Source: Treponema sp.
GTDB lineage: Bacteria; Spirochaetota; Spirochaetia; Treponematales; Breznakiellaceae
Assembly: GCA_031278815.1 (NCBI GenBank)
Contig: JAITJS010000032.1
Coordinates: 1-33,441 of the forward strand
Reading direction: 5' to 3'
Length of the DNA stretch: 33,441 bases
Part shown: one piece after another, positions 32,151 through 33,372 of the stretch
Layout: the number at the start of each line of letters is the position of its first letter
How positions within the stretch are numbered: the first letter of the stretch is position 1
Translations under genes and position numbers: made by a program
Notes under the pieces: model-generated
Database searches by the model: none
The model's input: the letters and a program-made list of their open reading frames with translations, nothing else
What the model was told of the DNA's origin: nothing

Positions 32151-33372
32151 ATGAGCAAAGCTGATATTATCAAAACCGCCTTCCGGGTGTGGGGGCGGAG
32201 TCTGTACCAATCAACGAGCCTCTCTGACATTGCCCAAACATTGGGAGTGAGTAAATCCGCATTATACCGGCATTTCAAAAGCAAGCAAGCCCTCCTAGAG
32301 GCGATGTATGAACGGTTCTTTGATGAATATGCGGCGTTTATAAAACCTCAATACCATAAAGTCCGGGCAAGCAAGGATAAACGGGAAGGGCTTTGTATGA
32401 TGATACGGATCGTGGTGGAGTATTATGTCCGAAATCGGGATACCTTTATTTTTTCCCTGATCCTCGTGTATGGTAATCAGCACCTGGAGCATATGATAAG
32501 TTCCATGCTCTCCCGTGGGCTGGATATGCAGCAGCTCTGTTGTCTCGAGAAGGGGAATCCATCCTATCCGTCCCTCACCCAGTTAGTCCTCGCTAGTCTG
32601 ATTTTTTTTGTAGCCTATTTCCATAAATACGATCATCCCAGCGAAGAGGCGCCTTCGGATGAACAGGTTCGGCAGTTTAGAGAATGGGTAGAAGAAAAAA
32701 TAGCTCGCGGTTTGGGTTTATACCAGGAAACCATAGAGGCGCTGGATTTTGAAAACCTGGAAAGCCGCTTTCACGAGGGGATGCTTCAATTCAATAGAGA
32801 TAAATCCCCTCAGGATATACAGGGATTAGATAAAAAATATAAAAAAAGTGAGGATGGTAGTTTGTTGAAGGCAGTAGCCGCGGTGATGGCTGAGGTAGGC
32901 CCTTGGAACGCCTCTATGGATAAGGTGGCCCGCCGTTCGGGGTTGTCCAAAAGTGGACTCTATTCCCATTTTAAGAACAAGCAGGATATGATCCAGTACG
33001 TATTCATGGGGGAATTCAAGCGGATCCTCCGGTACGCCCAAGCAGGCTTGAGTTTGTCCACGGTTCCCGAGGAGCAGCTCTACCTGGTGATCCTCGCTAT
33101 CGTGAATTGTCTTCGTTCCCACCCTGAAATCTTGGAGGCTATAGACTGGCTCCGTACCCGGCGTTTGAGTATTGATTCGAAGCCACCGGAGGTACTGCAA
33201 ATTTTTTCGGCTATCCCCTTTCAACCTGAAGGGCTTATCACCGAGCAAATCGGGCATCTGATCCTTTTTCTGATCATCAATACCCTGATGCGTCGTCCCT
33301 CGGACATGGGTTTCTCGGAACTGCCCGACAGGAGTATCAGGATTTTGTACCGGTTCATTACCATCGGGTTCC
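32151..33372 (+). CDS. Transcriptional regulator with two TetR-type DNA-binding domains in tandem, 3' end cut by window edge
   Basis: An open frame runs from ATG 32151 without a stop to the window edge; 407 codons are readable before the poly-G run. Residues 1-47 are a TetR helix-turn-helix (SLSDIAQTLGVSKSALYRHF then KSKQALL). Residues about 48-235 are helical and fit a TetR ligand/dimer domain. From residue 237 a second TetR helix-turn-helix follows (ASMDKVARRSGLSKSGLYSHF then KNKQDM), then another roughly 120-residue helical domain. Both helix-turn-helix copies keep the Y.HF.(S/N)KQ motif, so both could bind DNA. The gene is missed by simple stop-to-stop listing because its end is not in the window. 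No clear ribosome binding site. A ligand cannot be named. Confidence 0.85.

What the first reader, a model, noticed from the sequence alone, without database searches (positions are those of the whole stretch)
32151..33372. Two TetR DNA-binding domains in one polypeptide
A continuous frame carries a TetR helix-turn-helix at residues 1-47 and another at about 237-285, each followed by a helical ligand-type domain. TetR proteins are normally single-domain dimers of about 200 residues. A covalent pseudo-dimer with two non-identical halves could recognise asymmetric sites or two ligands.
Basis: seen in the sequence. Interest (0 to 1): 0.66.

Follow-up and report, generated by a model that had tools for sequence, protein, structure and literature searches.

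The report
Single-chain double TetR efflux repressor
Many spirochaetes carry one gene that fuses two different TetR repressors into a single protein, placed behind a conserved DNA site at the head of a multidrug-type efflux pump operon, and in one family that gene often contains slippery poly-G/C runs that could switch it on and off.

Summary
One open frame (32151 to the contig end) holds two TetR DNA-binding domains, and it is not an assembly error: 144 of 195 genomes of the same family match, and 23 of 25 loci read from other families of the phylum hold an intact fused gene. It heads a conserved operon: double TetR, outer-membrane channel, adaptor, RND pump. A 20-bp near-palindrome, gTTA(A/C)CGACCGGTCG(G/T)TAAc, lies just before the start codon in 135 of 139 orthologues. 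AlphaFold packs both halves of the chain together (pTM 0.81), and the best structural match is Mce3R, the known double-TetR repressor of M. tuberculosis (Z 19.2 over 337 residues). So this is most likely a natural single-chain TetR pseudo-dimer that represses its own RND efflux operon: a new lineage and variant of a known kind. The operator is nearly symmetric, but its halves are rarely identical. Unexpectedly, poly-G/C runs of 10 or more are about 57 times denser inside this gene than in its flanks, arose repeatedly, and in one genome break the gene. This suggests a phase-variable repressor, which is unproven.

The parts
32072..32100 (+). predicted promoter: TTGCCT (32072-32077), 17-bp spacer, TATTAT (32095-32100)
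   Evidence: read; the aligned upstream regions of 135 orthologues show T-rich -35-like and -10-like peaks at these distances from the operator. No transcript data.
32105..32124 (.). predicted operator GTTAACGACCGGTCGGTAAC, core of a 30-bp near-palindrome 32100-32129
   Evidence: inverted repeat, 93%; only exact site in own genome; 135 of 139 orthologues with at most 3 mismatches, none of 695 shuffled upstream regions below 4
32151..33371 (+). double-TetR repressor, 407 aa present, 3' end missing (contig end)
32166..32306 (+). N-terminal TetR_N helix-turn-helix
   Evidence: 55.9 bits
32307..32750 (+). N-terminal all-helical ligand/dimerisation-type domain
   Evidence: AlphaFold helices 45-187
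32751..32858 (+). inter-half segment including the low-confidence linker (residues 216-232 pLDDT under 50)
   Evidence: the stretch between window residues 205 and 241 varies from 15 to 47 residues in 133 orthologues
32862..32999 (+). C-terminal TetR_N helix-turn-helix
   Evidence: 43.4 bits
33000..33371 (+). C-terminal all-helical ligand/dimerisation-type domain
   Evidence: AlphaFold helices 277-406
33373..33441 (.). terminal run of 69 G: assembly artefact at the place where same-genus orthologues and contig C88 carry a poly-C tract

Best explanation
A natural single-chain TetR repressor. The two TetR units of one polypeptide pack against each other through their helical domains and present two non-identical recognition helices to the two half-sites of one 20-bp near-palindrome. 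That operator starts about 5 bp downstream of the predicted -10 box, so bound repressor would block transcription of its own gene and of the downstream outer-membrane channel, adaptor and RND pump. An unknown ligand (a pump substrate, by analogy with AcrR/TtgR/MtrR) would release it. Shown by sequence: the fusion, its conservation, the operon, the operator. Shown by prediction only: the intramolecular pseudo-dimer. Inferred: repression, induction, ligand. In this family the gene itself often carries long poly-G/C runs, so slippage may add random on/off switching (see the section on the most novel reading).
For: Fusion conserved: 144 of 195 family genomes match, 35 of 42 of the good-quality ones. 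Of 25 loci read from other families, 23 hold an intact single frame (11 of 11; 12 of 14). Operon: an outer-membrane-factor-sized ORF follows in 18 of 18 loci read (RND-sized ORF in 16, the other 2 contigs end first), 11 of 11 (RND in 10) and 13 of 14 (RND in 12). Pfam OEP, HlyD and ACR_tran confirmed for L036 and L046, and OEP and HlyD for contig C88 of the window's own genome. Operator: 135 of 139, a single good site per promoter (second-best site at most 4 mismatches in only 3 of 135), fitting one pseudo-dimer per operator. Structure: pLDDT 80.3, pTM 0.81 for the whole chain; whole-chain match to Mce3R 9b7y, Z 19.2, 337 aligned residues, against 15.5 or less for single TetR chains. No conserved internal start for the second half: 10 of 133, against a mean of 13.1 in control windows.
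Against: No binding, expression or ligand data. Mce3R forms a dimer of chains (PMC11667970, abstract), so a four-HTH assembly cannot be excluded. Three orthologues with 240-300 bp of upstream sequence (L157, L178, L182) and L049 (only 75 bp) show no operator. No recognition-helix residue tracks the operator class, so which half reads which half-site is unknown.
Confidence: 0.82

Rival explanations
1. Two chains swap: N-halves pair with N-halves and C-halves with C-halves, giving two ordinary symmetric TetR heads joined by linkers that bridge or loop two operators.
For: Each half has a complete TetR fold; Mce3R chains also dimerise (PMC11667970, abstract); a linker region of 15-47 residues is present.
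Against: One operator per promoter and only one exact site in the own genome. The single-chain model is confident as a whole (pTM 0.81) and matches the intramolecular Mce3R arrangement.
Confidence: 0.12
2. An assembly error or a chance joining of two neighbouring tetR genes.
For: The contig ends in an artefactual G run; the gene is incomplete in the window.
Against: Fused, single-frame orthologues at 33-83% identity in many genera, in single-contig genomes too (G153, G155, G046, G048; G685).
Confidence: 0.01
3. The protein is mainly an activator or a distant regulator, and RND adjacency is incidental.
For: Ligand and target are untested.
Against: Operator just downstream of a -10-like box and 1-148 bp from the start codon; same gene order across the families sampled; no second close operator in the own genome.
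Confidence: 0.05

Closest known systems
Mce3R (Rv1963c) of Mycobacterium tuberculosis, PDB 9b7y; the 'double TFR' subfamily
   Same: About 400 residues, two TetR units in one chain; predicted whole-chain arrangement matches (Z 19.2); gene lies at its own regulated operon; two non-identical HTHs.
   Different: Only 14-16% identity. Mce3R binds a non-palindromic 25-bp site and controls mce3/lipid genes (PMC11667970: abstract, sections 20 and 25 and passages seen). Here the site is a near-palindrome and the target an RND efflux operon, in another phylum. Common or separate origin of the fusions was not resolved.
AcrR, TtgR, MtrR (local TetR repressors of RND pumps; roles recalled)
   Same: TetR_N fold, local repressor position beside RND genes; MtrR, TtgR and AcrR are among the PDB sequence hits.
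   Different: Those are homodimers of single-domain chains of about 200 residues (recalled); here both halves are in one chain and differ.
Engineered single-chain Tet repressors/transactivators (PMC1797012, search listing and start of abstract seen)
   Same: Two TetR units covalently joined so that one chain can supply a dimer.
   Different: Laboratory constructs; this one is natural, widely conserved and made of two diverged halves (25% identity over 77 aligned columns).
Phase-variable contingency loci with simple repeats (e.g. nadA/NadR of Neisseria meningitidis, PMC2791445, abstract seen)
   Same: Long simple repeats that could switch expression.
   Different: There the repeat lies in the target's promoter; here the runs lie inside the repressor's coding sequence.

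Membership tests
TetR family (Pfam TetR_N) | TetR_N helix-turn-helix above the curated cut-off | tested here: met
   Two matches, 55.9 and 43.4 bits against 24
TetR family (Pfam TetR_N) | one HTH plus one helical domain per chain of about 200 residues, acting as a homodimer | tested here: not met
   Two of each in one chain; so not an ordinary TetR
Double TFR (Mce3R kind) | two TetR units in one polypeptide | tested here: met
Double TFR (Mce3R kind) | intramolecular pseudo-dimer with a shared four-helix bundle | tested here: inconclusive
   Predicted only: pTM 0.81, Z 19.2 to 9b7y over the whole chain; coordinates were not inspected
Double TFR (Mce3R kind) | non-palindromic operator (property of Mce3R itself) | tested here: not met
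   Near-palindrome, with rarely identical halves
Local RND-pump repressor (AcrR/TtgR-like in role) | gene adjacent to an RND tripartite operon, with an operator at the promoter | tested here: met
Local RND-pump repressor (AcrR/TtgR-like in role) | release from DNA by pump substrates | not testable with these tools
   needs binding assays
Phase-variable contingency locus | long homopolymer tract in the coding sequence, beyond background | tested here: met
   C/G runs of 10 or more: 31 in 169 kb of coding sequence against 1 in 312 kb of flanks; runs of 6 or more equal
Phase-variable contingency locus | off variants and tract-length heterogeneity within a population | tested here: inconclusive
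   One genome (G110, L172) is frameshifted at a G10 run; no reads were available

The most novel reading that the evidence does not exclude
In this Treponema family the single-chain efflux repressor is a contingency locus. Poly-G/C tracts have arisen several times, at about eight different loops of the protein, so slippage switches the repressor off and a fraction of cells constantly over-expresses the RND pump (bet-hedging). Tracts at the inter-half linker (five genomes of one genus) would, when out of frame, leave an N-half of ordinary TetR size, turning the single-chain pseudo-dimer into a possible homodimeric TetR that would see the near-symmetric operator differently.
Probability: 0.4. 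Interest if true: 0.75.

Novelty: new variant of a known kind. Interest (0 to 1): 0.56.

Why it matters
It shows that the covalent TetR pseudo-dimer, known in structure from one mycobacterial protein, also exists as a widely conserved efflux regulator in spirochaetes, with well over a hundred natural sequence-operator pairs. That makes two questions directly testable: how two diverged recognition helices share one near-palindrome, and what is gained by fusing a repressor's two halves. If the poly-G/C tracts act as switches, it would also be a repressor-borne route to random multidrug-efflux heterogeneity.

Tried and rejected
Assembly artefact and two-gene readings: rejected through orthologues. 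Expression of the C-half from an internal start: not supported (10 of 133 against 13.1 expected from control windows). Covariation of recognition-helix residues with operator class, to learn which half reads which half-site: no signal; the top positions lie outside the recognition helices. A larger regulon: no second close operator in the own genome. A homodimeric control operator set with many orthologues was not found, so the asymmetry test rests on a phylogenetic independence model alone; a sign test on independent pairs was not significant (median p 0.219). The single-domain TetR control for homopolymers is small (26 genes, 17.4 kb, one run of 8). Duplication versus fusion of two different TetRs was left open (the two halves align at 25% identity over 77 columns; no tree with single TetRs was made). 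Of the papers, the Cuthbertson and Nodwell review and the Folcher paper are not held.

Full report
What is there. One frame starts at 32151 and runs to the contig end; residues 6-52 and 238-283 are TetR_N domains. The final 69 G are an artefact. Contig C88 of the same genome starts with a copy of the gene's last 34 codons (71% identical in protein, probably low-quality ends), then C21, then an outer-membrane efflux protein gene and an adaptor gene. In five same-genus orthologues whose contigs continue, a poly-C tract of 9-20 sits at the same place, and the protein tail after it is read in different frames in different species. So the window very probably ends at that tract; that C94 and C88 are neighbours is inferred.

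Distribution. In the window's family 144 of 195 genomes match at E 1e-20 or better, in 48 of 56 genera. In the order, 155 of 390 match at 1e-12 (not all checked for fusion). In the phylum, 31 of 392 match a 23-sequence profile at 1e-20. I assembled 142 distinct family sequences and read 25 loci from other families: 11 of 11 intact, and 12 of 14. The two broken ones, L199 and L201, have close relatives (L200, L202) that are intact; in L201 the RND gene is broken too. Record titles of the named relatives say Treponema sp. or Spirochaetaceae/Spirochaetia MAGs or genomes; that most come from termite guts is recalled, not from a call.

Operon. Behind the double-TetR gene lie an outer-membrane factor, an adaptor and an RND pump. 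In 18 loci read the channel-sized ORF follows in 18 and the RND-sized ORF in 16 (L045 and L048 end first). In one search the counts are 11 and 10 of 11, 13 and 12 of 14. Most were judged by size and N-terminus; Pfam was run on two loci and on C88. The gene upstream varies; in the window it is a chemoreceptor-like ORF on the other strand (29466-31661; by eye, no family search was run on it).

Operator. The consensus gTTA(A/C)CGACCGGTCG(G/T)TAAc is present with at most 3 mismatches in 135 of 139 upstream regions; 695 shuffles gave none below 4 (three of the 142 sequences had no start in hand and were dropped). The four without it are L049 (75 bp upstream only), L157, L178 and L182. Bases flanking it show -35-like and -10-like peaks; in the window these read TTGCCT-17-TATTAT, with the operator starting 5 bp after the -10. 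Each promoter has one good site, and the own genome has one exact site. The mRNA leader is short and only 27 of 139 start codons have an SD-like motif.

Symmetry. Position 4 of the half-site is A in one half and C in the other in 101 of 135 operators (64 in one orientation, 37 in the other); 18 are CC and 16 AA. On a protein tree, a model in which the two halves evolve dependently fits better (pos 4: LRT 13.75, 2 d.f., 0 of 60 simulations reach it; the count of mixed sites is reached in 2 of 60; pos 8: LRT 9.56). Against this, the independent-pairs sign test is not significant, part of the fit may reflect one AA clade, and no homodimeric control set was available. Of 130 operators in the family alignment, 12 have identical 9-bp halves; outside the family, 1 of 23. 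I read this as moderate evidence that the two HTHs prefer slightly different half-sites and that the chain can sit in either orientation.

Structure and mechanism. AlphaFold2 with 23 sequences gives pLDDT 80.3 and pTM 0.81 for the whole 407-residue chain, with low confidence at residues 131-136 and 216-232. Foldseek and VIA-align both place Mce3R first, over the whole chain (TM 0.53/0.55; Z 19.2, rmsd 5.1, 337 residues), while single TetR chains reach Z 15.5 over one half. The Mce3R paper (PMC11667970; abstract, sections 20 and 25, passages) reports a single chain folding into an asymmetric pseudo-dimer with two HTHs on one site, and says double TFRs are infrequent, with 204 predicted in actinomycetes. 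The same mode is therefore the best explanation here: one chain on one 20-bp site, repressing its own RND operon until a ligand releases it. Repression, ligand and stoichiometry are inferred.

Unexpected: poly-G/C tracts. C/G runs of 6 or more are equally dense in the double-TetR coding sequences and in their flanks (0.525 per kb each), but runs of 8 or more are 0.236 against 0.0128 and runs of 10 or more 0.183 against 0.0032 per kb (31 in 169,419 against 1 in 312,276 bases). In the loci L035-L058 alone there are 8 runs of 9 or more in 29.9 kb of coding sequence and none in 203 kb of flank. Runs of 9 or more occur in 34 genes (139 of the 142 could be examined, and the window's own terminal G run was left out), at window residues of about 71-76, 132, 161-165, 229, 342-346, 361, 380-388 and 407 onwards, that is in loops, linker and tail. 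Counting the window as a bearer, presence changes at least 20 times on the tree, against 27-35 for shuffled labels. The own genome has 35 runs of 10 or more, mostly with no long ORF across them (30 loci inspected), so the in-gene position is unusual. One genome, G110 (L172), is frameshifted exactly at a G10 run near codon 165. This pattern fits a contingency locus, but relaxed constraint in loops plus slippage would also make tracts, and no read data were available.

Novelty. The double TetR as such is known (Mce3R). New here are the spirochaete lineage, its efflux operon and near-palindromic operator, and the tracts. I found no report of a TetR double repressor in spirochaetes or of a phase-variable TetR efflux repressor in the held library (search listings); that library is partial and the listings were not all read.

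Noticed in passing
window 33373-33441; L247 107-127; 34 orthologue genes: Long poly-G/C runs concentrated inside the double-TetR coding sequences, nearly absent from flanks; possible phase variation of the repressor.
   Followed up: partly
L172, offset 880 (G110): Double-TetR gene split into 171-aa and 243-aa frames exactly at a G10 run: a candidate phase-off variant.
   Followed up: partly
own genome, 35 places; relatives up to 155 per genome: Genomes of this Treponema family carry dozens of C/G runs of 10 or more, many in apparently non-coding DNA, a few near the N-terminus of lipoprotein-like ORFs (L284, L288).
   Followed up: partly
L241 2738-3931, L242 2685-3866, L243 2562-3740, L244 2463-3608, L245 2206-3372 (minus strand): A second, different double-TetR protein (about 380-400 aa; two TetR_N confirmed by Pfam in L241) beside ketoacyl-synthase-III-like and acetyl-CoA hydrolase/transferase genes in other families of the order.
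   Followed up: partly
L202 7723-8016, L195 7903-8172 and similar ORFs in other loci: A PII-like protein of about 90-100 aa (Pfam P-II) follows the RND gene in many non-family loci; a possible pump-associated PII-like sensor.
   Followed up: partly
upstream regions of 139 orthologues: Only 27 of 139 start codons have an SD-like motif, and the operator often ends 1-8 bp before the start codon, so the mRNA leader would be the operator itself.
   Followed up: no
L199 and L201: Broken double-TetR frames outside the family, with intact near relatives L200 and L202; the RND gene of L201 is broken as well.
   Followed up: no
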